From positions 1-64,000 of the forward strand of contig JAAMPI010000010.1 of the NCBI GenBank assembly GCA_013054445.1: DNA of 64,000 bases, written 5' to 3'. The notes under the pieces are model-generated. The model was not told the DNA's origin. It saw only the letters and a list, made by a program, of their open reading frames with translations, and searched no databases. The position numbers were made by a program, and so were the translations under genes. This document shows, in pieces, positions 8,888-50,152 of this stretch (positions are counted from its first letter, which is position 1; the number at the start of each line of letters is the position of its first letter). The DNA comes from Cudoniella acicularis (lineage: Eukaryota; Ascomycota; Leotiomycetes; Helotiales; Helotiaceae).

Positions 8888-11800
8888 TTAAACTCTCTCT
8901 AGAGCATGGGTGATATCTCGAATGAAATTATCCTCATGAAGATATGGTTTTGCTTTCAGAGAAGCATTTGAAGACCTTCCAGATGACTCGTAACCTGCTC
9001 CGCTTCGCGCAAGCAAAGTGACACGAGCTGGCATGACTTTTTTGACTGGTGTATGCAGCATTGCTGATTGTGTGAAGAGAGTCGAGGCTCTGCTCCCGCT
9101 TGTTCGGTAACCAGCACTCGTTCCACTGTCGAACAAGCTTCTGATTCCAGGAGTCATCAGGGTCGTGGCTCCAAGTGAGTTGACCATCATGCTCGTTGTC
9201 TGTATAGAGCTTGCAGGTGCCCTGCGACTGGGGTTGTGAATCGCACCAATAGAAGCTGTTCCCCAAACATTACTAGGTATCGGCACTTCTGGAATTGAAG
9301 GTCTGAGTTCTGGCTTTCTGGATTTTGGTGCTCTGAGAAGATCGTATCGAGCTTTCCCGATCCAGAGCATTTGCTCATGTTCGCGGAGATATCTTTCTCC
9401 ACCGAAAGATTTCTGGACGATCTCCCGACTTCGCATTCCAAGTGCTTTTCTTTGCTTGGTTTTTTCATACATTCTCTTAGTAATTGTGGCAATATTGTCT
9501 GCCGTGGGCTTGTCGCCAATTGTTGGGGCAACAAAGCCTTCTGGGTCTTCTGCATAGGGAGCCCATTCGTCCAAGAGTGCCAGGAAATTGATTTGCGCTC
9601 GTGCAAGATTGCGAGCATCATTAGGGGCTACGACTGCACTGTAGCAAGCTCCAGTGTCGGGATCAGTGAGGACTCGTAGTGAAGCCCCTACATCCGTACA
9701 GACAACTGGCGCACCTGTGAGAGCTGCTTCGCCTAAAGCAAGGGGAAGGCCTTCGGAAATCGAAGAGTTGAGGAATACCCAAGTCTTTTCAAGGACTGTT
9801 GTAGGATTTGCTTCTCCGCGCATCACCACAAATCGAGGAAGAGACTTGGAGGCTATGATCTCGAAACAATCCGTCGAGTACGACGGGGCTTTATCGATGG
9901 CACCATAAATGTCAAGTCGGTAGTCAGTAAACCCCCATTCGTTGACTATGATATCGGCGGACAATATTGCGGTTTTGATATCCTTAGCATACCAAACGTG
10001 AGATAACATCGTGACTGTTGGGAGTTGTGACTTGATTTCCTTGATCGGAGCGAATTTCGACATATCTGGAATACCGTTGACGACAGGGTCAATTTTCCTC
10101 TTGAAAGTGTTTCGGTGCTCAAGACGACCTTGGCTACTGCCGATTTCGACTTCCCATCCGGGATTGAAGAAGTCCGCACAGGGAAGGATGGTATCGGCAT
10201 GGTGCAGAACCAATTGACTGGTGATTCTCATAAGTCCTAGCAATGCGTTTCTGACAAAAGGGGCCATCGCGCATAGGTCGGAGGAAAGATATAGATTCGT
10301 TTCACGCCAGCTAATAGCGTGATCCCAGATTTGTAGTGTGCATCCACGTTTGATTTTGCAAACAATACCATAGGAGGCACTGACACTGTGGTGAGAGGCC
10401 TGGAAGATGGCAGGAATCCTATCCGGTATTGGTATCGAAAATATGAATAAATAGCGATACCACAGGTCAAGGGCAGCATCCATTTGGGCAACTGTGGGAA
10501 TTTCCGTCTGAAACCACGATTCTGAAGGAGTTGGGCTGACCAGATCCTCACTGATCCACAGGTTACGCCAGGCGTCCTTCACTACATCACTTGTCCAGAT
10601 TGCGCCCCAATGCTTTGAATCGGAGAAATATGTGTTGAGATTGACCAAAGCTCGAGTGGTTTGATTAATGTCGCTTTTGGTAAAGTTGCTCGTTCTGGCA
10701 CCTTTTACCAATGCAGTGAGAATTGGTAGGAAATTTCGTTGAACATCCATTTTGGTTGCGTCTCTTGGAACATGTTCGACCTCCGAGTCTAGTCGATCCT
10801 TGAAGAGTCCATGGGTAGGGGTAAGAAAGTCCAAGCCCCAGAGCGGAATGACTTTAAGACTTCGAACATTCATTTCTGTCTGCATTATTTGTTAGCAAAA
10901 ACAGGAGCACGACTTCAGAATTGCTTTACCTGATGCTTGGGAAGTCCGGAATCGTTGGCAGACTCCGCGATCATGTACCAATTCACCGATCGAAGATTGT
11001 TAATCATGTCCCTACGACAAGCAGAAACACCACCACCTTCGTTCGGCCAAGTACCCGAATCGACAGCCAAAACTTGAAGGCCGCCGTCATCGAAATCAGG
11101 TGCTTTCGATCTCGTGCGACTGTTTGCGTCTCCGCCCTGACCAAAACTGTAGAGATCTGCGATCTTTATAGCAAGAGGTGCCCAGCCGGAGATAGAATTA
11201 TCCAAGTCAACCGTGGCCATGATTCCGTCTGCATTTTCATTTAGGAAAGCTTCTGCTGCAGCAAGATCTCCTCGGTCTCTTCTCCGCCAGTAGGGCCGTA
11301 ACAGTGGCTCGTGTCTTAGTAATTGTTCATCGAGATATCTCACCACAACACCATCGAACCCAGGGGTATTCTTCCACGCAGTCCACAATTTTGAGCGAGA
11401 CCTAGAGGTAGATACTGGGTTTTGATGTGTGTTGAGACCCAACCATCTCGGTAGAGCATGAGAGCTCAAAGACTTGAAGCTAATGAGAGGATCGTCATTA
11501 TGAAAGCTAGATCGGGTGGGCTTCTTTAACACTCCGAGATGGTCCCACTGGATGATTGGTGGCGTATCGATGGGCTCTCCATTAAGGGTCGTATGAATTG
11601 TGGGATGGAATTTGTGGTCGTAGCTCCAGTGCGATTCGTATACATCGGACCCGAGGACAAAGGTCGCTTCGGTCACCTGAGAATGTGGTATCCAAGTATC
11701 AAGTCTCTCCTGATGGGTTGCTGGAGGTGCAGACCAAGAGACCGTGCATGTTAGATGAGGTAAGACAAACTCTGCTCTTAATAGCTCATCCTCGAAATCG

Positions 11801-14800
11801 CTACCTTGTCGGTAATGGCAATTGAAACGGATCAAACTTCCGTGAAGAATATATGATCCACTCTGTATGAGGCCTCTGGAATTGAAGTTGACCTCTTCAA
11901 ACTCATCCTTTCCTTCAATACATTTTCGCAGGATCGGATAGCGAGGTTTGTTCACCCTTGAAAGCAGTCTCCGGTTTTGCTTCTGCTGTCCGGCTGCATA
12001 CTCGTAAACGTAGACATTGCCTTTGACGCCGTTCAAGTACTCTACCCGCCGTAACAAAAGCATGGCTTTATTGTAGGTACTGATCCGTTGAAGTTTAGCT
12101 GTTTCTGCGGGTTCTCTGTCCAGGTTGCCTGCGTATTGATAGATCTTGAATGTTCCCGCTCTCCCGTAAGGCGAGTGGATGAATGCTGTCGATAGCCCTT
12201 CTGTTGTCTCAATCGCAATTTTTTGGCGCTTCAAAGCCACTGTAGTTCCTCCAATTCGGCTCCATAATGTGCTGACATTCTTCCGGCCATAAAAGAGGAA
12301 AATAGGCATTGTCAGATCTTGGAGAAATTTGGAATACTTCCAGACGCCCGTGGCCACGAACATGATAATGTTTCGGATGATCCTGTTGTGTGAATGTAAC
12401 GCGAAATCAAGTTCACGCTGGAACTCAGGCTCTGCAACGAAGGCTATTGCCAAGAGTTTAAGACAGACCCCGATATTATGGTATAATAAGCTGAATGGGG
12501 CTTTTGAGCGGCGAAGGACTTCCCGGGTTGTTATTTTCGGTACCGTAGGCTTAAGGCGAAGAAAATCCAGAGATTCTAAAGCTTCTGGCGAATGATTCAT
12601 TTCGTCTGACTTCTCGTCGCGTGCTCCAAGAGCATATTTTCGACTTGACAAGGCAACGAAAGCACCAAAATTGCATCGAGTAAGGAATGTTTTGATAGCC
12701 ATCCCCCGGACTTGGTTGAAAACAAGCCATTCGTGTTGAGACCGAGTCAACATCTCCTCTTGACCGACGCATCTCCTTATCACCAATTCTCGGATATCGC
12801 GAGGAAGCAGATCCCACTGTATTTCAGGATCAAACTGTAATGCAAGATATTTCAGGGTCTGGTCTTCAAAGAATTTAGCTAGGGATCGTGCCCTGGTAGA
12901 CGACGATTTAGATTGATTCAAATAATCCTTGACGCGATTTGGGACTGGAGTGTGCTTGATTCGCTGCGACGGAGGCGCGGGCGCCAGTAAGGATTCGGCG
13001 AGTGAGGCATCGTCATGGGTCATGCTCATAAGTGTTTCCGCTACAGTATGAACCATAACTTCAGCAGTCCTGTTGATCATGAGCAAGATGCTTAAAAGTG
13101 GAATCCGCGAAGACTTACGTTTGGCAAAATCTCTTGATGCCTGACTGTTGCTCATCCGAGTGCATTATCTCGCATCCGACAATAATGTGCACTTCCCCTT
13201 GAATGGCGTAGGTGACAGCCTTCACATCTGGAAATGTATCCTTCATTGCTGCAACTGGCACACAATCTAGAACTAAAGTTCCACGCTCGAAGGCAAATGC
13301 AGTCAATTCCAGAAGCTCTGTGGCCTCAGGGAAAGCCTCGAGAGCAAATTTTATTAGTGTGGTCCGAGGGTCGCGATAATTTCCAAGGGCATGCAGTAGG
13401 ATTGATTGAATCTCCAATCCAGGGTGGGTTTGAGGGTCTAGTCGATAACGCTCTTCTTCTCGCATTGCTCTGAGGTTGTGATACACAATTCTCAATTCAT
13501 CCTGTGATAAAAGAGGATCTTTTCCAGGGTTGCTGAAGGAATGATAATATCCATCTGGGGACAATTTGTTGTAGCCATCTTCTGATCCTAGGCTCCTACC
13601 CTTTTTGTGAATAGCCTTCGTCTTGATACGGGCGTAATAGAGCGTTAAGAAAGCAGCCGTCCAACATGCGACACCAAGCGTTATTACATCACAGTACATG
13701 AATCCTGGGAAATAGTGTCGTAGAATTTGTCCGAGCGGGAGACCTATTCCAACAGCGACAATCAATGGCTTGAGGCTTCTCGGTCCCGAGAAGATTTTCG
13801 TGTACTAAACCAAATATTAGTGCCAGTTTTTGGGTTGACTTGAGCTATAGACCATACCTGATACCAGAGGAGACCTGGAAAGAATATTAGCATGGTATTC
13901 TTCGAGGGTTAACAAGATTTAGCATACCTGTGTAAGCGCCAATATATGATATGAATAATATCGTTGACTCAAGGGTGCTGTCGAAAGTCCAGAGAAGGGT
14001 TGATGCAATCGCTAAACTCCAGACATGCATTAAGAGGTACCGGCCGAGCATGGTCCAGTACAGGTATCGCCTAGCTTTGACCTCTCTCTTGACCGCCTCC
14101 GGGATTGACAAAACGTTCCCTATGAGCATATTTTGACCCTTTGCTGTCATGGTGTGAAGCTTAGCCGCGTTGAAGTCCAGAAGTACGGCTCCAATCAGGT
14201 AATAAGCAAGCGCAAAGCCAACAGGCATGCGGTACCTTGTGTTCAGAGCTGAAAGACCTAATAACTGTCCGCCGTCTAGCAACGAGCTCCATTTGTCAAG
14301 GAGAGCAACAATGAAATAAAGAAGACTGCACCCGACCTAAAAATCGAAAATTAGCGTTCGTCAATCAATAAAAGCACCGGCTACTTACTTCATCTCCTGC
14401 CTGGCGCCAATGAATGAAAGCATTGTGAAGACGAATGCCAGTTTGCAGTTGCTTCAGGGTCTGTAGCGCAACCTTCGTCTGCATGTTCCAGGTTGATGAG
14501 TACGGCATTGGCAGGGGAGTTCCAGAGTAGCCGCTATACCACTCCAACAAGAAAACAGTCGCATCGTAACTCTTGACAAGCGATCTCACAAGAGGGTCAT
14601 GCGATTTTCCGCTGAATGGCTGTCGATGTGCTGTTACTTCTCCGATCATAGCAGCTCGTGCCAGCTTAAGTACTGCAGGATCCGTCATGCCAGCCAAAGC
14701 CTTTTCATCGCCGTCCTCGTGAGTCTCAATGTACCACTCTCGTAAGGTTTGGTCGGTGAGCTTTTCAATGTCTAGATACCAAGTGGTCCATCGAGATCCA

Positions 14801-17800
14801 GTATATCGTACACCTAGGACTAGCAGGACCAGAAAGACATAAATTACGGACATGTATACGTAAATATCCTTGTTCGGGATCCATATTGTGATGATAGGGG
14901 AGATGAAGAGGAATGGAACGACCATGATGATGATTGGACGACCCTTTGCACTAGTGAGTATCAAGTAATATTGGAGAGCTCAAGAATTATCTTACCGACT
15001 GAAATGGAGAACCAGGATATTGAAAATTTGCTAAAGTCGCTAGTAGGCAAAGGTAGGAAGTCAACGCGACAAAATAAAGGAAAAATACTATTCCAGCGAC
15101 AATGCCATTTTTTGCTCCGACGGCAATAAAACCAATAATAGCAACTGCCAGCGTGAAGGCTAGACCACCAATGAGTCTTGTGAGCACGAACATGTTCATC
15201 GCTGAAAATGCCATTGATATCAAGTAGTAAGAGCCACCGCATGTGATCCAAGTACCAACAGCACCGGAAATCAGTAGAGATATCATTAGAGCCATTGTTG
15301 CAGAGTGTTGTTCCGTGTGGCTCATATAACCACTCAAGTATAAACCTCTCCCGGTTGTTGTAAGTAGGAGGATATCGATGAGAGCGGGAATAGCAAAGAC
15401 ACTCAAAAAGGTAAACCTTTTATGAGCAGACATTGATGACTTTTTTGCGTTTGGGTCAACATCTATTTTCGCAGCAGCGTACGCAGATTGTGTGGTAGGC
15501 TCCAGATCTGACCAGATAGGCGGTTCATGACCAGGTCGATGGTGGTAGGTTCGATACCGATCGGAGAGCAACTTCCCGAATGCACTTGGGGTAAGATCAA
15601 AGTATGCTTCGCATCGTGCACCTGTAGCGAAAAGCTCGGCAAATGCCGCCGCTTGGTCACTCTGATCGTTGAAGAGTGTATTTCGATCCGTAACTTCCAT
15701 GTACGCCTCGTCAAAAGCATGCTTTCTCATGGCGCAAAATATGGAAAAGGCCAGAAGATCCACCCGTGTATCTATTTTGTCGTGTAAAAGAACACCATCC
15801 AGGCAGTCGGTAATTTGTTGAAGCTCTGTTATCTTCCTTTCTTTCAACATTGCTGTGATTGTGACGTGAACTTGAAGAAAGTTATCCAATGCGATAGCCT
15901 CGTTAGGGTATTGACATCCATTCTGACGATACCACTGAATGCGGGAGGATATTAAGTCCTGTGCGGAGGCACGCCCACTTAAATATCCACTGGTGCTTGT
16001 ATCCTTGAGCTGCGCAAAATCTGTACATTCCAACAGTTGCGCCTCGCAAGCTCTCCGAATCAACCCAACCAGAGAGGGGTCTCCAGTTAGTGGGGTAAGG
16101 TTGAGAGATTGAAGGAATTTCAGCAGTTCTGATGGAGAGAGTAGTGTAATGTCATGGTAGAGCCTGGGGGGTAAACCTGAAGGCTGAACAAGGCTGTTTG
16201 ACCATTCGGAAAACAAAACCTCTGCCTGGAGACATTCATGTCTGGGACAACCTCGACTGGACAAGAACGTGTGCAAGATTGCTCCGGGTATCTCCTGCGC
16301 ATTTCTCGATAAGAAAATATCTAATGTCAAGTCGTCGTCGAGCGAGTATACACCCCAGAACCGGACTCCTGATTGGATCTGGAAGCCCGAAGCCAGGCCC
16401 GTGTGTACGCGTATTGAATTTGGTGTATTTAAAGCCATAGTGGAAAGCTGGTGAGCAAGCTCTTGTATAGCAGCAAGCCAATCTGACATTTGGCCTGTGT
16501 CTTTACCACTGAGAGCGTCGCAAAATTCTTGTAGTTTCCTCCCAATCTGATGTAAAACAGGTTGTTTCATTTCATCGAGAAGTTTCATTTCCTTCAATCG
16601 TTGCTGAAATTGGACGACCTCGACAAATGCTTTTTGTGTCACATCAAAACCCAAAGGAAAGCAGCCGAGGTAATCGTAAGATATGCCTTTCGGAGAGTGT
16701 GATATTGCGTGCCCAGATTGTTTGTCGAGTAGAGAGAGCCAGCTCAAGGAGCCAAGAGACATGGACGATCCGTCGAGAGAGGCATCTATAGACTCAGGTT
16801 GAGAGCCTGTAGGCGACCTGGAAGGCGTGGAAGACCCCGATGCGGCAGTGTTAGAAGACCAGCCAGCTACACTTTTCGAGTCAACCACACTTGCTGAGCC
16901 AAAACTGGACCGCTCGGTATACATCCGTGGCCGTGAGACTTCGGTTGATGCCCCGGCGTAAGTAGAGAGCAGTCGGTGTAGACGATTTAGAGCCTGCGAG
17001 TTTTCTGGCAAGTAATTTGGAGCAACCTAAAATTTGTTAGGATTTGATTTAGTTTCATTGATATTTGTCTTGAATTAACATCAACTCTTCGAATGTGGCA
17101 ACTCACAGTTTGATTAGATCGCCATAAATCGTGAAACTTCATAACACGGAGTTCTTTAAGCCAGTCGAAAGCACCCAGAGGTTCCATTTGATCGAGAGAA
17201 ATTTCAGCTGACTTGAGGGCAGATTTTGAGCCAATCCACGGTAAAGCGCTGTAGAACCTCGACCATTGATAGCTTCTTTTCACAATAGCATTCAGGGGTA
17301 TTTTATCATCATCCAGGGTTTCCCAAAGGAGTACCACAAAACTTCGCAAGCAAGCCTGAGAGACAAAGGCCTTGATTGTCGGACGCATCTCAGCCATTTG
17401 GAACGCGTCGCGTTCCTCGCCATTTGCCGAAATTGTGCCATTACGAATGACAATTCCCCGAACTTCATTCAGCTCTGCTAATGTAGGATCTGACAAAAAA
17501 ATTTGGAGCTTTAGTTTCAAGGTATGCCGATAATCCAAGATAGTTCGCCAAGTAAATGAACTCTATCAAGAGAGGGACTGTCAACAGCGTCTCCCAGTTA
17601 CTGATCAGGATACCAGTAACCACATTCTGGCCATTAGAGGTTCCTTTCCAAACTCTTGCCAAGTCAGAGAGCCATTCTACGATAGCGACAATGGGCTTCT
17701 GGGTCGTATAGGAAGCCACAATTTCGACGTCTAGTCGGGCCAGGGCTTGCGGTGGCAGTTTGTACAGGCCTGATGTCATTGCTTCCATGACGCCGCGCTG

Positions 17801-18424
17801 GAGGGGATCGAAAATGAGGAGGTCCCATTGCGCCAAGAGCTGTACCTGATACTTTGACGGAGGGCTGTCAAATTCACCAAGATACACCCCATAGCTCCCA
17901 GGTTTTGTTTCCAGCCTTTCAGTTTTGCAGTTCGAGAGTTCTTCGGCAGCATTCGAAATGTATTTTTTGACAGAGGATGAGACAGCTTTCGGATTTGACC
18001 TAAATTTCTACTTACTGTTAGCCTTCCATAAAGATATAGACAAAGGTAAAATTGATTTAGACATCATAGAAAACATTCTCATGAGCTCAAGAAACGGGCC
18101 AACTCACTATCCATCTTTTTCGAAGATCCAAAATTAGTATATATAAAATGAATAATGATCCGCACCCAATACAAATGATGATGAATCCAATGAGAACCTA
18201 AGTAACTGATCAGTCAAAAGACATTATAAAGCTGGAGAGAATCCAATACCCATGACCACCAGTCTATAAAAAGGTCGGTGTAGTCACCACCAGCAACACC
18301 CGTGATCGTAGCCATTGGGACACACAACGAGTGAAATGGAGAGCGAACAGAGATGGCACAATATAAGACAAAAGACGGAACGAGTGACGGATAGTAGTCC
18401 CCAATCAAGTCAAAATTGCGGGGC
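8888..18424 (-). CDS. gtb3: Giant membrane GT4 glycosyltransferase, galactosaminogalactan synthase candidate (Gtb3-like)
   Basis: Exons read as 18250-18424, 18108-18197, 17107-18007, 14996-17026, 14389-14943, 13928-14336, 13858-13874 (17 nt), 13119-13804, 10930-13069 and 8888-10879, about 3000 residues in all; the first coding exon, right of 18424, was not resolved. Order of parts: an N-terminal membrane span (around 18150), a barrel-like region (17.1-18.0 kb), a long soluble region, a block of membrane helices (13.1-15.3 kb), then a C-terminal GT4 glycosyltransferase domain of the PelF-like type. The GT4 motif EGLPLALGE (EX7E) lies near 9720-9760. In Aspergillus, Gtb3 is the GT of GAG synthesis and probably polymerises and exports it. 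A one-base frameshift in a run of seven A at 17495-17501 interrupts the frame. Neighbours agd3 and uge3 support the role. Confidence 0.75.
13858..13874 (-). other. 17-nt micro-exon of the gtb3-like gene
   Basis: The exon is flanked by an acceptor (…TTCCAG) and a donor (GTATGG) on the minus strand. Including it joins ISYIGAYTG to LLWYQ and YTKIFSGPRS in one frame; skipping it breaks the frame. Confidence 0.75.
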
Positions 18425-20579
18425 CTAGAGGGACACCATCAGCGTAAAGTGCCAGACGCAGCTCCACGTGGTGTGGACAAGGTCTTAGGATGGACAAGAA
18501 ATCTTCAAAAGTCTCTCGGCCCAAAAAGACGAGCGGAGGGGAGAGTAGCACGAAGCTGCGAACATCTCGAGAGAATGACATCCGCTCAGACGGAATACCA
18601 CTTTGGTGAAATGCTAGCCGAGCCCCAGATTGATGAGAAAAATGAATAGGCAGGATCCGCGTTAGCTTGACAGCTTACGATGCTCCAACATCGGGCCGCA
18701 TTCCAGACCTTGGCGGGCGCCAGCAAGGGAGGGCATAGCGGAGGCCATGATCCAGAGGAAGATGGACCTCCAGCGGTGGGGCAGCCGTTGCAAAAGGCTT
18801 GCGGATATTAGATCATTGGCTGGCTCGAAGGGCAGGAATTGCACCGTGGTAGCCAGAATTTTCGAGAACAGCACTCGAAGGCCTGGTTAAAAACAACACG
18901 TGGTTTGGGAGCCATTGCTACAGAACTCTTGCTGCACTGTATAGTGCTGGGAGATGCAAAGCAAGCAGTAAAACCAGCGCCCCGGCAGTACCCTGAACTC
19001 GCTCTGGACCGCCGTGTGGACTACCACACCACGAACAATGGAGGGCGGGGCAGTAAGCGGGAAGGCGAATGCAGTTATTGGCATCTGTAGCCATCGGCAC
19101 AAGCACAGGCACTGGCCTGGCGGTGCAGACTCCAGAGGGGGCCAGAGAGGCAGAGTGAGTTGTGACAATGGCAGATGCTGAGATGGGGGCTCCGAGAGCG
19201 AGCGGTGGACAGGAGCGTGATGCGGAGGTAATATGTCGATATTGTGTATGGACTTGATGAAAGTCTGGGCACGACGAGGGTCAGACCCATTTCGTCTGGA
19301 GTCCAAGGTTGTTTGTGGTGTTGGTATGTGAGGCTGGTTGGGATGGTTACTCGAGTATGGGGTAAAAACTTCGACGTCGTCAAACGCGCTGCTGTCCTTC
19401 TTACCCTTGTCGCATGGTCCGTGCCCTGTGGCATTTGAAACCAGCATTCTCGGAAGCAGCGCGGTGCGGTGCACTGGTGATCCACCAGGAGGATCTGCCA
19501 NGCCATCAGCCGAAACTCTTAACGAGACTCTTAACGCAACCTCAATCCTTCTCCACCTCCTACCACCCAGCACCACTCACTCTCACACTCCCTCTATCGA
19601 AATGCGAACAGAGACATTCCACTCTCCCATTACGAACTCGATGACGACCACTACAACACTGCGCCCGCTGGCGCTGACCCTCTGTACAGAGTATCGCTCC
19701 CCTTCCGCCGATCGGCACGGATGCAGAGCCATGCCTTGCAGGCCAGGATGAGAAACTTCGTGCAGACGATTTCAGCCAGATCATCACATCTACCATATCC
19801 ATAGCCTCAGCCAGTGTCGGCCACCACAGCGCGCAGTGCGGCCGTCTCTCGGCGGGCTCCACTCTTCATCTCCAGACCTCCAGGAACATAAATATCCAAA
19901 GTGGACTGTATATCGATATCGAGGCTTTGTCTATGGGCCCCAAGGCGAGCCTCCTGATTCGCCAGTGCGATGCGTGCCCGAATTTATCCATGATGACCCA
20001 TCGCGGCTATTCGAGTGACGCGCCTCGTTGGTCAAATGTCATGTGCAGCAATACATTGTATAGTACGGAGTACAAAACACTATGTTTTTTTTTTTCAATC
20101 CGTTTTCTACAGTCATTACTATGCGCCGGTCATTCGGTCCCCTATGGAATTGAGTCCAGTAAGATGGCATCGCTTGCTTTTCCGCTCCGTAGCGGCGTTG
20201 CTGGACGGCATTGCGGAGAGTGGCGGCGAACATTTATGGGGCAACATCTGGGGAACCAAGTGCAAAGGTGGAGTTTCTTGCTACATTGTCAATTCAAACA
20301 CCCTACACAGTATTTTGTTATTAGATTCAAGCTGTTGAGGTTAATATCCACCCCCCAATGCTCGGCCTTTTGCAACGTCAACAACACACGCGTCTTTTAC
20401 AGAATTTGGCCACCATAGTCCTCTTTACTATCGGTGTGAATTCATCCCGCGCAAGCGGATCTTTTTTTCTCAACGACGTTCCTTTATATACTGACCCGTC
20501 GTTCTTAGAAGGAAAGCCAGCACATGTTCTCTTGACTGACGAATGATTCGCTGTCTGCAAAGTTGAACTCGAAAACGCC
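18425..20579. other. Bidirectional promoter region between gtb3-like and agd3-like genes
   Basis: The two cluster genes diverge from this 2.1 kb interval. It must also hold the unresolved first exon of the gtb3-like gene, probably at its left end. An ambiguous base is at 19501. Long frames on both strands (for example 18887-19576 minus, 19338-19751 plus) run through GC-rich sequence, one crosses the n, and none shows domains; I do not call them. A TTATATA element sits at 20484-20490. Confidence 0.5.
20484..20490 (+). promoter_or_regulatory. Putative TATA box of the agd3-like gene
   Basis: TTATATA lies about 90 bases upstream of the ATG at 20580. Motif and distance only. Confidence 0.35.
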
Positions 20580-23442
20580 ATGTTATTGCAGCCAAATTTG
20601 TACTTGGCATTGGCCTTGTGCCTGCCTCTGGCCAACGGATGCCGTGATCACCGTCTCTCTGCCAGATCATTGGAGCTTGAGTCCGTCAACAATGAGCAAT
20701 CTCTTGCGCCCAGCATCAAAAACTTCGCACCTCTTGTCGAGGTCACTGTGGACCAGGTGACTGTCAAAGCAAATACCACATCTGTGGCTTCAGCTTCCGT
20801 TCAAGCGGGTGCTGCTGTGGTAGCCGAGACCGTCAGCAGTACCGTCCTGGTGATTGCTCGAGATAAGGCATCGGCATATTCGGCATATTCTGGCTTGAAC
20901 GATCACGCGATACCATACACTGTATTGCTTGTTCCCTCCACTGGGATAACTCTGCCGAAATTGAATGACTCAGCAACCGTGGGCAACTTTGGGCTCATCG
21001 TTGTCCAATCAGAAGTTAGCTACCTGAACAACAAGACGAATACCTACCATAGCGCGCTCACTGATTCGCAATGGGCACAAATCTACAACTATCAGACCGT
21101 GTTCGGCGTCCGAATGGTTCGATTGGATGTTGCACCATCAGCATCTACCGGAACTGCGTCGCTTGGCGGATGCTGTACCACAGGAGATCAGGAAGTGTCT
21201 ATTTCCAACGACACGGCCTTCCCAACTGCGGGTCTTCAAGTGTACGTATTATACCCGTCAAGAATAACTGCTTGTTTCTAACCTTTTTTTTAAGAGGGGC
21301 CGGGCTTAGCACCACGGGGCTGTGGCATTACCCAGCTAAAATTATTGATTCTTCAATTGCAACCGAGTTTGCACAGTTCTCGGCCTCCGTTCAGGATGGC
21401 TTCAATTCCAGCTCAACAGCTGCCGTGATCAATAAGATTAAAGGAAGAGAACAGGTTTGCGCCACTGCCCAATGCAATAAACAACTACTAACATTCTGAT
21501 AGATGGTTTTCTTCATTGGTTTCTCTACTGACTGGAGCGTGACATCAAACCTTTTGCAGCACGCCTGGATCCAGTGGGGTACAAGAGGGCTTTGTAGGCA
21601 ACTTGGAACCCAATGCGTGAGTTAGACTAATGCTATTAGATACGGGTTATCGCCGTGCGATGTTAACTCCACAAATCGATGACATGTTTCTGTAAGTGGA
21701 TGATTAATATCCCCATCTTTCTTTCTGTAAATAACCACCCTTACTGAAATGGCTACCAGCGAAACACCAATTTACGATGATAATACGACTAACTTTCGTG
21801 TATCCACTGATGATCTTGATGGCCACGTCCAATGGATTCCTACTGTATCCGCAAAGCTCAATAATGGCAGTGACTGGTTCTTGGAAGTGGGCCACAACGG
21901 CAATGGGAACATTGAGGTTCGTAAATAAACCGCAAGTACGAAGCTTTCAAGTTCAATTACTAACATATCTCGCAATTTAGACAGTTGACACGGCAAACAG
22001 GGGGAATGCCGTATGTGAACCTGGGCCAAGTAGGTGATTCGCAAACAAACCCCTTTTCCACAAGACACGTGATCGCCAACCATACCTGTCGCGTCAAGCA
22101 CTCCTTCATACATTGTTTCTCTATGGAGCAACTTTAACTAATACTTCGTAGTTGAATACGATGACCAAATCGATACTCCACTAGAATTTGCCAAGCCGAT
22201 GGGCACTGGCACAGATTTATATCCATCAAATATGACAACATATCCTAATTACAGCACGACATGTACTGGTGCAGATACTCTGCTGACTTGGTGGCAAACT
22301 ACTACCAATCTCGACTCTTTCGCTCATATTTCACACACCTTCACTCACCAGGATGAAAACAATGCAACATACGCCGATGTATACAGAGAGATCACTTGGA
22401 ATCGAGCTTGGCTTGCCGCTGTTGGCATTTCGAACGCGAAGAAATTTAGCCCCAATGGGATCATCCCTCCTGCAATCACTGGCATGCATAATGGAGATGC
22501 GTTGAAAGGCTGGGCTGACGGGGGGATCAAGAATGTAGTCGGTGACAATACCAGATCGGTCCTTATGAACAAAGTAAGCGGGTACAGCTATGTTTAGAAC
22601 CGTTCTTCCTAACATTTTTCTCTTTAGGAAAATGAGCACTGGCCTCTCATCTCAACAGTTGCAGCCAACGGTTACGCAGGAATCCAAATTACGCCACGCT
22701 GGGCGTCCAACATTTATTACAACGTGTGTTATTCGTCATCTCTACTATCATTTCATTATTAACAAATTGATATAGTGCGACCTTCCTGCATGTACCACTG
22801 CAGAATGGCAAAAGTATTCGGCTGGAAAGGGCAATTTCTCCGATCTCCTTACGCTAGAGAAAAACACCAATGTCCGACATCTCCTTGGCCTGCATCACGA
22901 CCCGTACATGTTCCATCAAGCCAATATGCGCTGGAACGATGTCGATGAAACCACTGTCAATGGTGTCACCGGCTCGTATTCGCTGCTAATGACTTGGGTT
23001 GAGACTGTTGTGACAGAGTATCTCAGACTGTATGTACTCTGGTAGTTCATTATGATGGCGTGCTAACCTCATTATAGTGTGAAATGGCCGCTTATCTCTC
23101 AAACACACGACACTGTAAGTCATATTCAGTATCGTATATTTATATAGAATACTAATTTTGTCTCAGCTCGCCGCAACTTTCATGTCACGAATGGCCCGAG
23201 ACGCATGCAAGCCTTCTTTGAGCTGGGTCATCGACCCTTCTCAACAAATCATCACTGGAATCACAGTTGGAGCTACTGGAAACACCTGCACAGAAGCTAT
23301 CCCAGTCACGATTCCTACTCCAGTGAAGAGCACCACGGGCGCCAGAGTGGAACAACTTGGATCGGATCCTCAAACTCTCTGGGTCACTTTGTCCGGGAAG
23401 CCAGTAACTTTTACATTCACGACACCCATTAGCGTTCTATGA
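20580..23442 (+). CDS. agd3: Secreted GAG deacetylase, CE18 family (Agd3-like)
   Basis: Eleven exons (20580-21241, 21295-21454, 21503-21593, 21640-21691, 21760-21916, 21981-22029, 22152-22573, 22628-22723, 22776-23029, 23078-23114, 23167-23442) join in phase to 751 residues. A signal peptide (LALALCLPLANG) opens the protein. An N-terminal beta-rich region and a Rossmann-like part follow. The deacetylase core has a STDDLDGH metal/catalytic block near residue 336 and an HTFTHQ block (HXXTH) near residue 451. Agd3 removes acetyl groups from GalNAc in galactosaminogalactan outside the cell, giving the polymer positive charge so that it adheres. The gene faces away from the gtb3-like gene, as expected for the GAG cluster. 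No lesion was found. The family match rests on recognised sequence, not a search. Confidence 0.85.
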
Positions 23443-26329
23443 ACGAGTATGAGCTTGCAATTGAACTTCTAGATCTTTCCAAATTTCCACCAGATATATT
23501 ATATGTACATGCATGTATAGCATTGCATCACCCGCATCACACAAATTTCTATCTCATTGTTTCATTTAAGCAAAACTTTGCAGGATACGATTGCATACAG
23601 TGATGTATCTCTGTTCGTGCGGCGCAGGGCGCGGTTTGGTAGATTGTAGAACTAGTACAAAAAGAATTTCTATATTTTTAAATCCAAACTCAAATCTTGG
23701 CTCGCTCTTCTGTCGCCAGTTGCGTGCAGTACAATGCAGCAAATGCAAATCCAAAGAAAAGCAGTGCAAAAAACTCAAATAATTCAAACTCAAATTCTTT
23801 ACTAGAGAGAAAGAAAAGGACTTCACGAGAAGCCGTGGCGCCAAGGTACATTTCCAAATCCACCGTTGAAGAAGGCTAACTAATGGCTGCAGCCACAAGC
23901 TGCCGGTTAAATTCCCCGCTGCGACCCAGCATCGTCCCCAGACCAAGGTCCACCTGCATGCTTGCACGTACCTGCTGTACGATCTACGCCCAAAGCGACC
24001 ACACGACATCTTGAAACACTCCACACCACTCCACACCAAATACCACGCCCGTATTTCGACTCTTCCAATTCGCCAGTACAGAAACCCTAAATTTCCAAGA
24101 GAGAATAAATTGTCAAAATTATGTCACAAAATACCAGTCTGCTTAAATTCCCACCAACCTCATCGATTTTTCTGTGACTCGCGCACTCACTCGCTCACTC
24201 GCAGGTGGAGAGAGGAAGGGAAAACGGGAATAAGGCTAAGGATTTCCAAGCCCCGATCGTTCAATCCGATTGATGGCGTTTTTGATCTGCTCGATTCCTC
24301 TTCTGCTGCACGAGCACGGCCGGGATTCACAATGTGCCTGGCCGGCCGGCCCAGAAACACCCTTCCTAGCCAAGGTTCTTCCAAGCTTTCCTTGCAGGTC
24401 AAAAAACCTTCTAGAACACGTACGGATGATCTCAGGGTTCCCTCCCTAGTTCCTTGTCAATGCCACATCATCTAGAATACCCCAGCAAAAAAACTGGGGC
24501 ATTTAACATCACGCCGGGGAAGCAGCTCAGCCTTTTTGAAAGCAGAAAAAGTCTTGGCATTCAGCCTGTGGGTATGTGGGGATCCTTCCCTGTGCTGATC
24601 ATATATCATCCCAATCCTTATTTCCCCTCGCCGAGCCCGACCCGTCCTCCTCCATGTCGCGATTTTCACCATTCCGTGCGTACCTGTCGTATCAGATCGC
24701 GCAATACCTTCCCGTGTCCCCCCTACTGTACGAAGTATCCTTGTAATGCTTGCCCTACCCTAAAAAGCTTACTTGCTCACTTGCGCACAGCAAGCAGTAT
24801 TGTCATGACATGACACGACATGACATGTTCTTTCTGTACGAGCTTACGCCTCCCACCCACTTACCTGCCTGTGCGTCCGAGATCAACCAGACTTCGAAAT
24901 CTGGGGATAAGCGGCGTAACGGCGTCGAGGGGGAAAAAGCTTAGTTACGCCTCAGGCTTGGGGGCGGAGAAGCAATGCAGAGGAGGGTAATGGGGGAACG
25001 ATGCTCCGCTCCGAGAACCGAACCGAATCTCGGTACTTTACTGTACACGTAACTCCCTACTTGTACATGTACATGTACATGCTGAATGGAAAGGGTAGGG
25101 AATAGAAAGGAAAAGAAAGGAAAGGGGGCGACGACGCGTACGTCATGTCATGTTGTAAATTGAACACTACAGCACTGTACTTTACAGTGCTTTTGCATAT
25201 ACCCAGGTGAAATTTCCCCGCGAACTCTTACTCTGCAAAATAGCACATGTCTGTCTGTCGTGTTAATGAGGGAGGGAGCGGGTCGTAGATGAAAAATGTG
25301 GAGTATGGAGGTGCAGACGGGGAGAAACATAGTTCCGGCACATCTCGACAATTACAGTTTCTCGACCTTGCCTTCGATCTCAGCACCATGCATGCTAGCA
25401 GTTGCAGTACAGCGGCAAAGTTGCTACCGCTCGCTCGCGCCGGCACTGCAACTGCTGCTGCGGCGCTGCATACTGTATGTCAGGAAAAAGGGTCATGCAG
25501 CGTGCAGAACATTCGGTGCAGATCATAGAAAGGCACGAACGAGTCAGGAGGCAGAGGTTCCTGGTTTTTAGTCTGTGTGCACTTGCTTGCCCGGAGTATC
25601 CTTCCCCGAGGCGCGGTGATCACTTTTTTGATTTTGATTTTGTGGGTCCTGTTCGGCAGGCCCCTGGTCTTTGCTTACTGCAGCGAAAGATGAAAAGGTA
25701 ATACAGTAGACAAGATGAAAATGTTCTTAGAGAAGCACCTGACTACGGAGTTGAGAAGGAGTTCAAGGGGTAAGTGTGAACTCGGTCTTTTCAGACGAAA
25801 GCAATTAAGGTTACCAGGGATGACGCGTCCTTTTGTCTAATCCTTTCCTCCGGGGCCTTCGAGGCTATTACTTGCATCTAGCCGTGTATTGCTCGGAACA
25901 CTTTTCGAAGGATAAGCGAAAGGAAGAGAGAGAACAGGAGAAGTTCAGCCTCGTGATTGTGAGGGTCCGAGGTATGAAGTACGAAAGAACCCCGAAGTAT
26001 CGGGCTGCGAGCCCTAAAGTATCTAATTCGCCAAATCGGGAAATAGTAGGCGCAGGGTTGCCAAGTACCAAGAGATCCTTCCTGCAAATCCCACGTGTTC
26101 TAAAAGCTGTTACTTCCGTGTGGGACGTAGACTGTAACCCACCGAATAAGTGTAAATAGTTTACTCCAAGCTTGGGTGCTCCATCCCACCGTGCAGGATT
26201 TATTGGCCTTGACCATACTTTGAATCCTTCCATCATACAAACCATTTGAAAAAAACCACATACCCTTCCCATTTCTCAGCACTTGACAACCACGCAATTT
26301 GCTCGGCAATCAGAAATACCTCAAAAATC
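23443..26329. other. Gene-free interval downstream of agd3-like gene
   Basis: Short frames occur on both strands (for example 24011-24475 plus, 25868-26272 minus), but none has domains, splice continuity or composition of a real gene. Simple repeats of ACATG and TGTACA units lie at 24800-24830 and 25055-25082. In the Aspergillus GAG cluster, as I recall it, the ega3 and sph3 genes lie between agd3 and uge3; nothing like them is visible here. Confidence 0.5.
25055..25082. repeat. Short (TGTACA)n palindromic repeat
   Basis: About three tandem copies of a self-complementary ACATGT/TGTACA unit follow a CTACTTG stretch. A microsatellite; no function inferred. Confidence 0.7.
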
Positions 26330-26515
26330 ATGTCTTCGGGTGGTATCTTCCCTTTTTCGAGACACCACACCGAGCCCGAGCCCAAGAGACGGCTCAGCTT
26401 GAGCTGCAAGATACTCGGAATAGCGATTCTGATTGTCATAGTGGGAGGAGTGGTGGGTGTAACTCTTGCTGCTCGAAAGATGCATGGACACACTCCACCA
26501 CCGGATGACAACTAG
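26330..26515 (+). CDS. Small single-span membrane protein, possible relic of a cluster hydrolase
   Basis: An ATG in good context (CAAAAATCATGTCT) opens a 61-residue frame. About 26 polar, basic residues (RRLSLSCK just before the span) come first, then a hydrophobic segment of about 20 residues rich in Ile, Val and Gly, then a short His- and Pro-rich tail and a stop. This is the layout of a type II membrane anchor with its extracellular domain missing. Ega3 and Sph3, the two glycoside hydrolases of the Aspergillus GAG cluster, are membrane-anchored and would lie in this interval. No GH114 or GH135 residues can be recognised after the stop. It may be a small real gene, a relic or chance. Confidence 0.35.
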   Translation: MSSGGIFPFSRHHTEPEPKRRLSLSCKILGIAILIVIVGGVVGVTLAARKMHGHTPPPDDN

Positions 26516-29500
26516 AACGAAAATTGCTGGGAAGAAGGATTGGTGGCAGGGAACCTCGGACCTTGATGAAGCCGCCCCCAACAAGAAGTATCTACCTACA
26601 TGTACGTTGCGGCAAAACATACGATACCAACATTTTACTCAGTTACTTCTCTTCAGCCCCTCCGGCATCAAGAGAGCCCAACACCGTCAGATCTCATCAT
26701 GCACACAATCGGAACATCATTTTACATCGAGTTTTTCCGGCCCGCGTTTCAGCGTTATCAGATGATCTTGAGAATCGGCACGCTCGTTTTGGGGATATAC
26801 CCGAGAGATGGAGATCAAATACGAAGTCTACATATCCTTCTAGAAGCATTCTGTAGAAGCCCCTCGATCCCGGATCCATAGATTAATAGCTGCGGTATTC
26901 GATCCCAGGACGGACATTGCAGATAGTGGGGGTGAGCTGAAAATCCCTCAGGTGTCTGTCAATGAGAGCACGAAGTGGATCCCTAATTGAGGTGTCAGCT
27001 TATGCGGATTGTTAGAGAGGCTATTGGGACCAGAGCATGGTGGTAATGATAAGTGGTAATAAGTGGTAGCCTTTCAATAAAACCATTGCCAATTCATTAA
27101 GATCGTGAACATCGAGATGCGTACGAGGGAGCCCAGTGACACAATCCTTCTTACCGCATTGTCATACAACAGAGCCCGAAATCCAGTCCGTCGGCCAAGG
27201 ATATGAATAAAGGCCGGCCATCAGCAAGGTTCTCCATCATTCTTCAATTCAGACGAAGCTGTGACTGGGTCGATTGCTTCAGTCTAAATTGATTGCGCGG
27301 CGGATTATCTTTATTGCTGATGATAATTGTGCGAAAGTTTAGGCAATTTTTGTGCATACAGCCTGCATCTTACTCCATAGATGGTAAAAGCCACTAGAAA
27401 CGCCACGGCGCGCGAATCAAGGTATCCTCATGCACGACATCTATTAAACGCACTTCGTGTGCTCATATTCGACATACCTTTGGAAAGGCGATTTTGACAT
27501 CCCACGCCATATTTAGTAGTATGTTGTGCTCGTATCGGCGGCGGCTGGAAACATGAATATCAGCCAGAACCTTGACAAGGAGGGATACTAGAGGTTTCCA
27601 AATAGTACATACTGCGGTAAATACACTGCTTTTCTCTGCTGAAATGTTTATTTAGGACCACCTCGCAAGTATGGTTGCCCGGCTGCTTTGGCTTTGACCA
27701 TATTCAAAGACAAAAAAATAAAAACCAGGCTTCTGCATGTGCATGAGCACATAATATGCAGATCATATATCCTAAACTAGCCTCTGTTCCGGATGCAACA
27801 GCTTAGACTTCCGCTAGGGAGTCAGTACTTCCAAAGAGGTCAAGTTTGTCTTCTTTTCGAGTCCTTTTGCCCCACATGTCGACTTTCTTGACCAAGATGC
27901 CGGAAACTTGACGCGCGGCCTGACCATGATGCCCTGTCTTTGTGGGGTATCATCCATGGAAGCTGCAGCCCCAAGAAAAATATAAAATTTGAAAAACAAG
28001 CTCTTTAGAGGCGAGGTAGTGCAAAGTAAACAACGCCACCTGGGTACAAGCTATTGAAACATAAATTAAAGACAGCTAAATTATGAGTCTTTGCTTTCAC
28101 GATGCACCATGGTCCGAGCTTCTCATGACCCATTTGCACGCATCTCCGATGTATAGCCCGGAAGATAGGGCCGTTGAACAGCTTCGAAATGGTGTAGTAT
28201 ATACACCTACAAACGTGGTCGCAGTGACTAACACGTTGAACAAATTCTATGATGTATTTGGCAGGAATGACTCTAAATAGAGTATAACGTGGGATTTAAA
28301 GTTTCTTCTTGCTGAAGTGACTAACGACCAACGCAGCGTGCAGTTCGTGGAATTTTTGATTCGCGCCAAGGTACCAGATCTGAGAATAATCAGCCCCTGG
28401 TTCCTAGATCGGTTTGATCGGAGACCCAAAGCCTAGGAAGGCGGCTGAGAAATCACCAGTCTCGTCCAATAAGCACTTTAATTCTCACCGACTGAAGCCC
28501 GACGGACCACAGACAACCCTGTTGGTGTTTTAGCCTCAATCGAGGCTGCTTTCGAGGTATCGCAAGAAATTCTCTCATCCTTGATGTTGCCCGACATTGA
28601 CTCAGCGGTAGTCCCGAAGACCGGTCAGTGTGTGCACCGCTCGAAGATTCTGACCATTCAGCCCATCGCTTGGATAAATCAACCGGCGTTCTTGTCTGAC
28701 CAAAATTCCCCGCAAATTCTTTCACTCCTTTGATTGCAGATACCACGCCGGCATATGTGATCATTGAAGAATTCAGCGCGGGGTGCGTCGAACTAAGGCT
28801 GCCAGGGTCAAACTGCCCCAGTAACAACCGAGATCCGTGGTCTCCCATAATTTATTTGCGTCCAGATGATGGGCAACGGCTATGTCTCCTCCGCGGCGCC
28901 TCGACTTGAGAAGCAATAGGAGCAGGCTCCCGAGGGCTAACCTGCCAGCCTTTGACAAAGCAATGCAACTGGTTCCTGCTTGACAACGAAGTCTCCAGGC
29001 TTTGGAGGCCGTGTGATAAAGCTGGGGTGAACAATGTATATGGTGAACTGGTGACATCCAAAACGGCCCGCCAAGATATTGGGCCTCATGAATTCAGTTG
29101 AGTTGGGAACTGGGTAGGTTATGAAAAGACCAAACCAAGTGCCTAATTGACTTCGGATCAAGGGCATTGCGTCAAGAGTGGCCAAAGATCAGGTGTTGGG
29201 TCACCAACTTCTTAACGGGACGGGACGCTGTGAACTAGTCAACGGGGTCGAAATGCAGTGAAAACAAGCTGGAACAAGATTCACTTTGCTTATTGATCCT
29301 CCCGTTGAATCAACCTATACAACCCCGGGATTTCTGGGGAAGAGGCACGCCGCGGACTCCTCGCCTCAATAGGCTGGATTTCTTTTCGACTCAGGTTCCG
29401 CGATTAAACCTTTGGCCGCCACAACGCGCGTCTCCATGGGAATGAGCAAATGCCATTAAGAATGGCAATATACCGCTGGTGCCAGGGCACTTGTCTAAAC

Positions 29501-29935
29501 ACAGAATCTCGGAGTTTTCTCTGACTTGCGTTGGCTAAGCCCCGTTGGAGCAAAAAGATGGAGGGCCGTACCGCGTGGTGAAAATAACGAAGAGGCGCCC
29601 AACTTTTTGCGAATTCTCCGTGCGTGCATTTCAGGGGGCTTCTAGAAGCAGCATTCCAATTTAAGACGCCTTCGAGCAATATACCGTGAAAATTCCCACG
29701 GCTGAGCGGGAATGAGAACCTGGAGCAGAGCCATATTAGTCTGACCAGCATCATTCGGGTCCGAGATTTATCACGCGAGAGAAACACGTTCTTGCGAGGC
29801 TGCACTCATACGCAGGACATCTCCGACCAAGAGCCAATACCGAAGTATAAAGAGTTGCAGAGGTTAAGGCCCACAAGAACCTCTCCAGCATATTTTTCAA
29901 ACTCTCTTCTTGCAAGGTTTAATTTTTTTTCAGAT
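26516..29935. other. Gene-free interval upstream of uge3-like gene
   Basis: Frames at 28083-28280 plus, 28453-28848 minus and 29404-29805 minus have no recognisable domain. The right end (about 29800-29935) is the uge3 5' region with a pyrimidine-rich leader. I looked for GH114 and GH135 motifs in all plus frames of parts of this interval and saw none. Confidence 0.45.
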
Positions 29936-31299
29936 ATGCCGTGCAGTACTTCTTCTGGCGCCTCGAGTCCTGGGCGATTCTCGTCCGGATCGGACTTTGG
30001 TGATCTTGATACCCCTTTCACCGAACGGTCAATCTTGTTCAATGACCACGACATTGAGATTGCTGTTCACCAGTCGGCACTTGAACAACACATTCTTGTG
30101 GTTGGTGGATGTGGATTCATCGGATCTCACACAGTATGGGAACTTGCAAAGGCTGGATATAATGTAAGCATGCCCTTATGTGCTGCTAAGTGTGGGGACA
30201 TACTCATAGTTGCGTACAGGTGATCATTATCGACAATCTCAGCAATGCCTTCAGCTCGGTTTTTCACCGACTTGATGCAATGATAAATCTCCACTATGAC
30301 ACGGTCAAAATTGGCTGTCGCCGACCATCACTCAAACTCTACGAGGCCGATTTTCGGGACACCAAGACGATCGAGAAGATTCTTGAGGCCTATGAAAGCC
30401 CCTTGGTATTTTCACAAGACACCGAAATTCAACGACATTCGCGCATTTCGGGCGTTATCCATTTCGCAGCTTTCAAGGCCGTCGGGGAGAGCATCAAACA
30501 CCCACTTAAGTACTATGCGAACAACGTTGGTGGCTTGATCGATTTTTGTAGCTTGCTCAGTGACTTTGGTATCAAAAATTTCGTGTTCAGTTCCTCAGCA
30601 ACGGTATACGGCACTGTGGCAGATCTCGGCATTCCCCTGCGTGAAGAGTACTGCAGTCAATCAAGAACTGTATTCATGGACGATGACGGGATAAAAAAGG
30701 TCGTGGAATCCGGATCTTCGGGGCTCACAAACGCATATGGCAGGACAAAATGGATGTGTGAGGCGATCTTGAATGACCTTGCACACGCGGATCCCGAGTG
30801 GACCATCACAGCGCTCCGATATTTCAACCCGATCGGATGCGATGAGTCCGGACTCCTCGGCGAAGATCCTCGGGCGGCGGCCACAAATCTGATGCCCGTC
30901 GTTCTGAGAGTCATCACTGGCGAGTCGCCTGTGCTCAACATATACGGCGACGACTACGACACACCTGACGGAACCGCCGTTCGGGACTATATCCACGTCA
31001 CAGATTTGGCGCTGGGGCATCTTGCCGCATTGAAGTCCCGTGCCGATCGAGGATTTCGAGTGTACAATCTGGGCAGCGGGACGGGACATTCGGTCCTTGA
31101 CGTCGTAGCCGCAATGGAGGCCGTTTCTGGGCGCAAAATCCCAACGCAGCTGGTCGGTCGGCGAGAAGGAGACGTCGGCATGTGTGTCGCGAAAGCAAAT
31201 CGCGCACAAGAGGAGCTTGGCTGGCGGACAGAAAAAACTCTCGAGACATGCTGTCGAGACGTGTGGCGCTTCCTTCAGGAGTCCAGAATAATTGTATAG
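29936..31299 (+). CDS. uge3: UDP-glucose 4-epimerase, GAG-cluster type (Uge3-like)
   Basis: Two exons (29936-30163 and 30220-31299) give 435 residues. The intron (56 nt) falls inside the NAD-binding domain after WELAKAGYN. The short-chain dehydrogenase landmarks are complete: GGCGFIGSH (GXXGXXG, about residue 56), IDNLSN, SSSATVYG, and NAYGRTKWMCE with the catalytic YXXXK near residue 248. An extension of about 50 Ser- and Asp-rich residues precedes the Rossmann fold, unlike housekeeping GAL10-type epimerases but like the GAG-cluster enzyme. It would interconvert UDP-Glc/UDP-Gal and UDP-GlcNAc/UDP-GalNAc, supplying both sugars for the polymer. The ATG at 29936 was chosen because it follows a pyrimidine-rich leader; an in-frame upstream start at 29792 is less likely. 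Confidence 0.88.
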
Positions 31300-49600: not shown

Positions 49601-50152
49601 TGGACGAGTCTTACTTGGCAGCCGATGATTGAAGCTTCCCATTTTAAAGGTGCGGATGATACTCCCAGTGGCATTTCGGCGAATGTGAAGAGGGGTGATA
49701 CGCAGCTTGCGATTTTTAGAGTTAAAGGAAAGTGGCTTGCCAGTCAGCAGATGTGTCCTCACAAGCGGGCATTCGTGCTCTCAGACGGACTCATCGGCGA
49801 CTCGAAGGACAAACTCTGGGTTTCATGTCCGCACCACAAACGCAATTTCGAATTGACGGGTGAGCAAGCAGGGCGATGTCAGAATGATGAGGAGCTTAGC
49901 ATAGCTACGTTTCCGGCTGAGGAGAGGGAGGATGGGATGGTGTACTTGAAGTTGCCGCCTGTGCATGAGTTGGATGGTGTATTAGGGACGAAGAAGTGGA
50001 TGGTGAAGAAGGGGGAGAGTGGAGAGAGGCCGTTTGAGAAGTTGGATAGGAAGATTGGGCCGAATGGGACGAGGATGAAGGGGAGGAAGCCGGAGGCGGC
50101 GAAGGCGTTGGCTGACTGCTGGGGCCCGGGGGAGGGGAATATTGATTGGTAG
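46618..50152 (+). CDS. niiA: Assimilatory NAD(P)H nitrite reductase
   Basis: Four exons (46618-46778, 46877-47027, 47084-49086, 49135-50152) join in phase to 1110 residues, normal for fungal nitrite reductase. Order: FAD-binding fold ([10 protein letters not shown], residue ~42), second nucleotide fold ([12 protein letters not shown]), a BFD-like [2Fe-2S] domain with [12 protein letters not shown] and [11 protein letters not shown] (residues ~500-540), the siroheme/[4Fe-4S] domain with CVGTTWC and CVREC (residues ~720-773), and a C-terminal Rieske-type NirD-like domain with CPHKRAF and CPHHKRNF (residues ~980-1005). The enzyme reduces nitrite to ammonium in the cytosol. The last intron splits the codon after AEAQNK, right beside the siroheme cysteines. 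No nitrate reductase or transporter is adjacent in this window. GATA sites upstream suggest nitrogen control. Confidence 0.95.

What the first reader, a model, noticed from the sequence alone, without database searches (positions are those of the whole stretch)
8888..31299. Galactosaminogalactan cluster with gtb3, agd3 and uge3 but no visible ega3 or sph3
Seen: a giant membrane GT4 transferase, a CE18-type deacetylase and an N-terminally extended UDP-glucose 4-epimerase in the order known from the Aspergillus GAG cluster. Known: Aspergillus clusters carry two glycoside hydrolases, Ega3 (GH114) and Sph3 (GH135), and in Aspergillus Sph3 is needed for GAG production. Here the 6.5 kb where they belong has no recognisable hydrolase. 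Inference: a reduced GAG system that either uses hydrolases located elsewhere, makes a different polymer, or is being lost.
Basis: partly seen in the sequence, partly recalled or inferred. Interest (0 to 1): 0.82.

Follow-up and report, generated by a model that had tools for sequence, protein, structure and literature searches.

The report
Fungal adhesive-sugar gene cluster split apart
In a fungus the genes that make a sticky wall sugar lie in one place, but relatives of the two enzymes that normally trim that sugar lie elsewhere in the genome, so the pathway looks split up and not lost.

Summary
The window (contig C2 of Cudoniella acicularis, Helotiales) carries open gtb3 (2867-aa model), agd3 (751 aa, active-site residues kept) and uge3 (435 aa). 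The 6.5 kb between agd3 and uge3 is single-copy DNA with no GH114/GH135 gene or relic above chance.

The inference is partly right. The genome has 11 GH114 and 6 GH135 loci. Contig C1104 holds a second deacetylase (agd3B, with a frame break in the assembly), a membrane-anchored Ega3 and a membrane-anchored Sph3 side by side, without gtb3 or uge3. C1633 holds another anchored Sph3 beside a decayed uge3-type relic. One gtb3 was found. So the five-gene GAG set is present but spread over at least two loci.

A tree puts the two deacetylases in separate Helotiales clades. Window-type agd3 shares a contig with a listed Ega3 or Sph3 in 0 of 17 rows, the other type in 11 of 23. The split is therefore probably old and shared, not decay in this species.

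Best reading: GAG is made by the window trio and trimmed by hydrolases supplied from elsewhere. Chemistry and expression were not tested; gtb3/uge3 placement in relatives could not be checked.

The parts
8888..18114 (-). gtb3: large multi-pass membrane protein with C-terminal GT4 domain, putative GAG synthase (10-exon model, 2867 aa)
   Evidence: GT4 Pfam hits; 10-exon model; 9 TM-like segments; best NCBIfam match PelF, below its cut-off; each of three pieces used as query matched only C2
20580..23442 (+). agd3 (clade A): CE18 GalNAc deacetylase with CBM87, 11 exons, 751 aa
   Evidence: Pfam PF25116 and PF25115 on single exons; gene model; 6nwz alignment keeps D377, D378, H510, H514, R613, M666, H668 (residues from passages, numbered by hand); tree
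23443..29935 (.). interval where ega3 and sph3 lie in Aspergillus; DNA without hydrolase gene or detectable relic
26330..26515 (+). 61-codon ATG frame with one strong membrane segment in the interval; not shown to be a gene or a hydrolase remnant
   Evidence: TM-like 28-46; best BLASTP E 0.028 to an Ega3 N-terminus without composition correction; 2.2 bits to the Ega3 profile, within chance
29936..31299 (+). uge3: UDP-glucose 4-epimerase with N-terminal extension, exons 29936-30163 and 30220-31299, 435 aa
   Evidence: gene model; Epimerase Pfam; TIGR01179 galE above cut-off; PDB epimerases to 1.4e-89

Best explanation
This is the synthesis half of a galactosaminogalactan (GAG) system whose five-gene set is dispersed over the genome. 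Uge3 supplies UDP-Gal and UDP-GalNAc, the membrane synthase Gtb3 polymerises and exports the chain, and the window's secreted Agd3 (clade A) deacetylates it. Cutting of the chain is done in trans by membrane-anchored Ega3 and Sph3 encoded on C1104, and by a second anchored Sph3 on C1633. The arrangement arose by an old duplication of cluster genes followed by complementary loss: C2 kept gtb3-agd3A-uge3; C1104 kept ega3-sph3 and a second deacetylase gene that is frame-broken as assembled; C1633 kept sph3 beside a dead uge3. Shown here: gene content, open frames, copy numbers found, two deacetylase clades, relics. Inferred: that GAG is made, that the distant hydrolases act on it, and the duplication-and-loss history.
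For: Open trio in the window. One gtb3 found with three separate queries. C1104: sph3-like gene 6722-7850 +, ega3-like 8389-9381 -, agd3B about 10533-13166 -; E 8.3e-59 to Sph3 5d6t and 3.2e-81 to Ega3 6ojb, aligned acidic motifs kept. Of 11 GH114 loci only C1104's has the Ega3 layout (short tail, one TM, GH114); the other 10 start with what look by eye like signal peptides. Of 6 GH135 loci 2 show a TM anchor. C1633: anchored Sph3 beside an oppositely oriented uge3-type relic with four stops that aligns through a stretch (about Uge3 221-240) which the ordinary epimerase on C224 lacks; C1068: a second uge3-type relic, 72% identical over 75 columns, lacking the middle of the gene. Agd3 clades A and B supported 100/100 and 100/99. 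Linkage to listed Ega3/Sph3: A 0 of 17, B 11 of 23; 9 of 9 species (Cudoniella included) have agd3A and the listed ega3 on different contigs. At least 3 of the 21 tree rows outside both clades (P0025, P0054, P0075) also share a contig with an Ega3, so linkage looks ancestral and clade A the exception. Venustampulla locus tags BP5553_03073/74/75 are agd3B/ega3/sph3 while agd3A is BP5553_02026.
Against: No polymer, transcript or protein data. agd3B of C1104 has a frame break, as assembled, just before its HXXXH motif; Venustampulla has an unbroken frame there. So C1104 is not a fully intact module in this assembly. The C1104 Sph3 sits on a long branch, which may mean altered function, and its first exon is not settled. 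Placement of gtb3 and uge3 in relatives could not be checked, so clade B trios elsewhere may still sit next to a gtb3. The root between clades A, B and Aspergillus has weak support (87/74), so which deacetylase descends from the cluster gene is open. The other GH114 and GH135 enzymes may serve foreign polymers. The assembly has 1836 contigs; C1633 ends about 1.6 kb beyond the relic.
Confidence: 0.66

Rival explanations
1. The window locus is a true three-gene system that needs no hydrolase: its product is exported uncut, and the C1104 genes are a separate module for breaking down foreign or old GAG/Pel-type polymer.
For: Clade A agd3 shares no contig with a listed Ega3 or Sph3 (0 of 17). In N. 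crassa the GH135 deletion strain still adhered to glass while synthase and deacetylase deletions did not (passages). One GH135 is listed among CAZymes unique to M. laxa and M. fructicola in a comparison that included B. cinerea and S. sclerotiorum (passage), while Sclerotinia and Botrytis have clade A Agd3.
Against: In Metarhizium the Sph deletion lost GAG staining like the synthase deletion (passages), and Sph3 is reported essential in A. fumigatus (passages). The C1104 and C1633 Sph3 keep the membrane anchor that fits work beside the synthase. Mei et al. count B. cinerea among species with the conserved cluster (passages).
Confidence: 0.2
2. The window cluster is decaying: ega3 and sph3 were recently lost and the rest will follow.
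For: Gap of 6.5 kb without recognisable genes where hydrolases would lie. Decay of other cluster copies is seen in this genome: two uge3-type relics and a frame break in agd3B.
Against: Three open genes with active-site residues of Agd3 kept; no relic above chance and no mutation signature in the gap; the separation is shared with distant relatives.
Confidence: 0.06
3. The polymer differs from GAG (for example pure poly-GalN or Pel-like), because synthase and deacetylase belong to a divergent lineage.
For: Agd3A forms its own clade; the GT4 domain of Gtb3 is nearest to bacterial PelF among NCBIfam models, below its cut-off.
Against: Agd3A keeps the residues of Agd3; the linked epimerase is of the extended Uge3 kind, which in other fungi gives both UDP-Gal and UDP-GalNAc (passages).
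Confidence: 0.08

Closest known systems
Aspergillus fumigatus GAG cluster (gtb3-agd3-ega3-sph3-uge3)
   Same: Same enzyme families, same relative order of gtb3, agd3 and uge3; relatives of all five exist in the genome.
   Different: ega3 and sph3 are not between agd3 and uge3; they lie on C1104 with a second agd3, and another sph3 on C1633.
Neurospora crassa GAG cluster NCU05132-NCU05137
   Same: Same five enzyme families in one genome (abstract and passages).
   Different: N. crassa has them in one 30-kb cluster.
Metarhizium robertsii MrGAG cluster, with deacetylase paralog MAA_08880
   Same: A second Agd3-type deacetylase exists in the genome (passages; its place is not stated there).
   Different: There ega and sph are in the synthase cluster; here they lie with the second deacetylase.
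Bacterial Pel system
   Same: GT4 domain of Gtb3 is nearest to PelF; Pel is also a partly deacetylated galactosamine polymer (abstract start).
   Different: Here synthase, deacetylase and hydrolases are separate eukaryotic genes and the synthase is one very large membrane protein.

Membership tests
GAG synthase Gtb3 | very large membrane protein with GT4 domain | tested here: met
   2867-aa model, 9 TM-like segments, GT4 domain; no direct comparison with A. fumigatus Gtb3 was made
Agd3 / CE18 with CBM87 | CBM87 and CE18 domains with metal triad, base, acid and CM3 arginine | tested here: met
   window gene. The C1104 copy has a frame break as assembled
Uge3 epimerase | UDP-glucose 4-epimerase linked to gtb3 and agd3 | tested here: met
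   use of UDP-GalNAc not testable
Five-gene GAG cluster | ega3 (GH114) at the same locus | tested here: not met
   the anchored one is on C1104
Five-gene GAG cluster | sph3 (GH135) at the same locus | tested here: not met
   anchored ones are on C1104 and C1633
Ega3 (GH114), C1104 gene | N-terminal TM anchor, GH114 domain, catalytic Asp and Glu motifs | tested here: met
Sph3 (GH135), C1104 and C1633 genes | N-terminal TM anchor and GH135 domain with acidic motif | tested here: met
   PDB comparison made for C1104 only; first exon of the C1104 gene not settled
GAG production | GalNAc/GalN/Gal polymer on hyphae | not testable with these tools
   needs culture

The most novel reading that the evidence does not exclude
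Helotiales run GAG as an ancient two-module system: a synthesis locus (gtb3-agd3A-uge3) and a separately placed, separately regulated processing locus (agd3B-ega3-sph3) with its own deacetylase, so that a fungus can make two forms of the polymer, uncut with one deacetylation pattern or cut with another, by switching the second locus. In Cudoniella itself the second deacetylase may have just been broken.
Probability: 0.2. Interest if true: 0.66.

Novelty: new variant of a known kind. Interest (0 to 1): 0.5.

Why it matters
GAG clusters are described as five linked genes. A genome with one synthase found, two deacetylase lineages and the hydrolases linked to the other deacetylase lets one ask directly whether Sph3 must be coupled to the synthase, why its loss blocks GAG in some fungi but left adhesion intact in Neurospora, and whether deacetylation patterns are set by separate enzymes. 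It also warns that judging GAG presence or absence from the linked cluster alone may miscount in Helotiales.

Tried and rejected
Relic of ega3/sph3 in the interval: tblastn with the C1104 pieces gave only E above 1, and profile scans were within chance. The 61-codon TM frame at 26330-26515 was considered as a stub of an anchored hydrolase; its best match is E 0.028 without composition correction and rests largely on the membrane segment, and the profile score is within chance, so it was not accepted. Transposon or mutation decay of the interval: not seen. A near search of the interval in 'plasmids' found nothing, as expected for fungal DNA. Literature: searches, judged by titles and abstract starts, listed no paper on a split GAG cluster in Helotiales; the library lacks most subscription papers, and supplements could not be read.

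Counting limits: 61 of the 120 listed Agd3 proteins (of 679 found) were put in the tree, chosen mainly because named; the Ega3 list shows 120 of 3865. The Sph3 search returned 80, none labelled Aspergillus, so absence from it means little. Contig length stood for contig identity; 27 Sph3 and 31 Ega3 contig lengths were typed by hand into, and the Ega3 of C1104 was added. The Fisher P of 0.0008 ignores relatedness, and one of the 11 clade B rows is Cudoniella itself.

Full report
What the window is. The Agd3 search returned a protein identical to the window's gene over 98% of the query, G7Y89_g292 of Cudoniella acicularis, on a contig of 101513 bases, the length of C2. The genome held is 53.2 Mb in 1836 contigs.

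The observation. Gtb3 is a 10-exon, 2867-residue model on the minus strand, 8888-18114, with 9 TM-like segments and a GT4 domain at its end. The model-building script forbids stops, so the natural long frames (665, 746, 674 codons) are the firmer evidence. Its nearest NCBIfam model is PelF of the bacterial Pel system, at 59-60 bits against a cut-off of 100. Agd3 has 11 exons with GT-AG introns. Against A. fumigatus Agd3 (6nwz) it aligns over residues 84-749 at E 2.1e-254. I mapped the residues named in the paper (passages of PMC7229062) on that alignment by counting: D377, D378, H510, H514, R613, M666 and H668 are all kept. Uge3 has two exons and 435 residues. The public annotation runs agd3 on into the interval and adds residues in front (P0001, 1148 aa), which the models here do not support.

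The interval. No GH114 (PF03537) or GH135 (PF12138) match falls on C2. Profiles built from 120 Ega3 and 41 Sph3 relatives give 2.2 and 2.1 bits at best in the interval, below the 95% points of 60 first-order simulated intervals (5.0 and 5.7). The same scan returns 509 bits (Ega3) and 189 bits (Sph3) on C1104 and 197 bits (Sph3) on C1633. The interval matched only itself in the genome, and its dinucleotide indices are those of the whole window. So the hydrolases are absent, and no relic can be seen.

The rest of the genome. PF03537 gives 19 matches at 11 loci on 10 contigs, PF12138 10 matches on 6 contigs. Both families meet on one contig, C1104, and a second Agd3 lies there too. The Ega3 of C1104 has a short tail, one TM segment at 33-51 and a full GH114 domain; the Sph3 of C1104 has a TM exon and a full GH135 domain, though its first exon is not settled. 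The agd3B of C1104 is not clean: as assembled, its frame breaks just before the HXXXH motif, where Venustampulla reads through without a break. The public annotation drops that stretch as if it were an intron and fuses agd3B with ega3 into one protein (P0045, 1095 aa). A pseudogene and an assembly error both remain possible. C1633 holds another anchored Sph3 (P0126). The other 10 GH114 loci start with what look by eye like signal peptides (no signal predictor was run). Of the other 4 GH135 loci, one has a signal-peptide-like start and a Ser/Thr-rich stretch, two show no anchor and one is cut by its contig end. Three more Agd3 paralogs lie on C1024, C740 and C1473, with no Ega3 or Sph3 match in the stretches read. 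Three separate pieces of Gtb3 each found only C2.

Relics. Beside the C1633 Sph3, on the other strand, lies a decayed epimerase stretch with four stops. It aligns to Uge3 214-294 at 31 of 82 columns and runs through about residues 221-240 of Uge3, where the ordinary epimerase on C224 has a gap. On C1068 a second stretch is 72% identical (54 of 75) to Uge3 141-211 and then, in another frame, matches residues 400-428, so the middle is gone. These dead uge3-type copies suggest that uge3 was once present more than once, and on C1633 next to sph3, as in Aspergillus.

Relatives. A tree of 61 Agd3 proteins has two Helotiales clades. A (17 rows, 100/100) holds the window gene, Sclerotinia, Botrytis, Monilinia, Venustampulla BP5553_02026 and others. 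B (23 rows, 100/99) holds the C1104 gene, Venustampulla BP5553_03073, powdery mildews and others. Using contig lengths, a listed Ega3 or Sph3 shares the contig in 0 of 17 A rows and 11 of 23 B rows. At least 3 of the 21 rows outside both clades share a contig with an Ega3 too. In the 9 species with both an A-type Agd3 and a listed Ega3, Cudoniella included, all 9 have them on different contigs. Consecutive locus tags support the B trio in Venustampulla (03073, 03074, 03075), Scytalidium (g9237-g9239) and a Mollisiaceae strain (004141-004143). Two Sph3 lineages pair Cudoniella with Tricladium: C1104 with one (98/100, long branch), C1633 with the other (100/99). Rows are related and the lists are partial, so this is a pattern and not a test. 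Whether gtb3 and uge3 travel with A in the other species is unknown and is the main gap.

Function. From the literature seen: Sph3 is called essential for GAG in A. fumigatus and proposed to act beside Gtb3 (passages, PMC12054363). The Metarhizium Sph deletion lost GAG staining while the Ega and Agd deletions kept it (passages, PMC8224951). In N. crassa the GH135 deletion still adhered (passages, PMC11356417). One GH135 is listed as unique to M. laxa and M. fructicola in a comparison of brown-rot fungi with B. cinerea and S. sclerotiorum (passage, PMC8959702). The most likely working of the present system is synthesis and deacetylation from C2, with chain cutting by anchored Ega3 and Sph3 made from C1104 and C1633. 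If the agd3B break is real, the five working functions are complementary between C2 and the other loci. That the enzymes meet at the membrane is inference.

Verdict. Observation confirmed. Interpretation partly supported: hydrolases elsewhere, yes; loss of the pathway, no. New variant of a known kind: a dispersed GAG gene set with two deacetylase lineages.

Noticed in passing
window 20580-23442 and contig C1104 (L017, L018): Public gene models look wrong at both loci: G7Y89_g292 runs agd3 into the intergenic interval, and G7Y89_g5585 fuses agd3B with ega3 into one 1095-aa protein and drops a stretch around a frame break.
   Followed up: yes
L018 about 1630-1680 (C1104): agd3B has a frame break as assembled just before its HXXXH motif; pseudogene or assembly error.
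   Followed up: partly
L020 1613-1867 (C1633) and L037 5566-5884 (C1068): Two decayed uge3-type epimerase stretches, one beside an anchored Sph3 gene, one with the middle of the gene missing.
   Followed up: partly
window 8888-10885: GT4 domain of Gtb3 is nearest to bacterial PelF among NCBIfam models; whether the membrane part matches PelG or PelE by fold was not tested.
   Followed up: no
window 31886-38876: Two long adjoining minus-strand frames (1203 and 1139 codons) next to uge3 without a Pfam match at E 0.001.
   Followed up: no
window 42192-45247: HLH domain followed by DUF2014, the layout of a fungal sterol-regulator (SREBP-type) factor as recalled, near the GAG genes.
   Followed up: no
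window 47387-50152: Frames matching nitrite/sulfite reductase and Rieske domains; an ordinary nitrate-assimilation gene by recall.
   Followed up: no
genome contigs C1024, C740, C1473 (L050, L051, L052): Three further Agd3-type deacetylase genes, at least two near contig ends, with no hydrolase match in the stretches read.
   Followed up: partly
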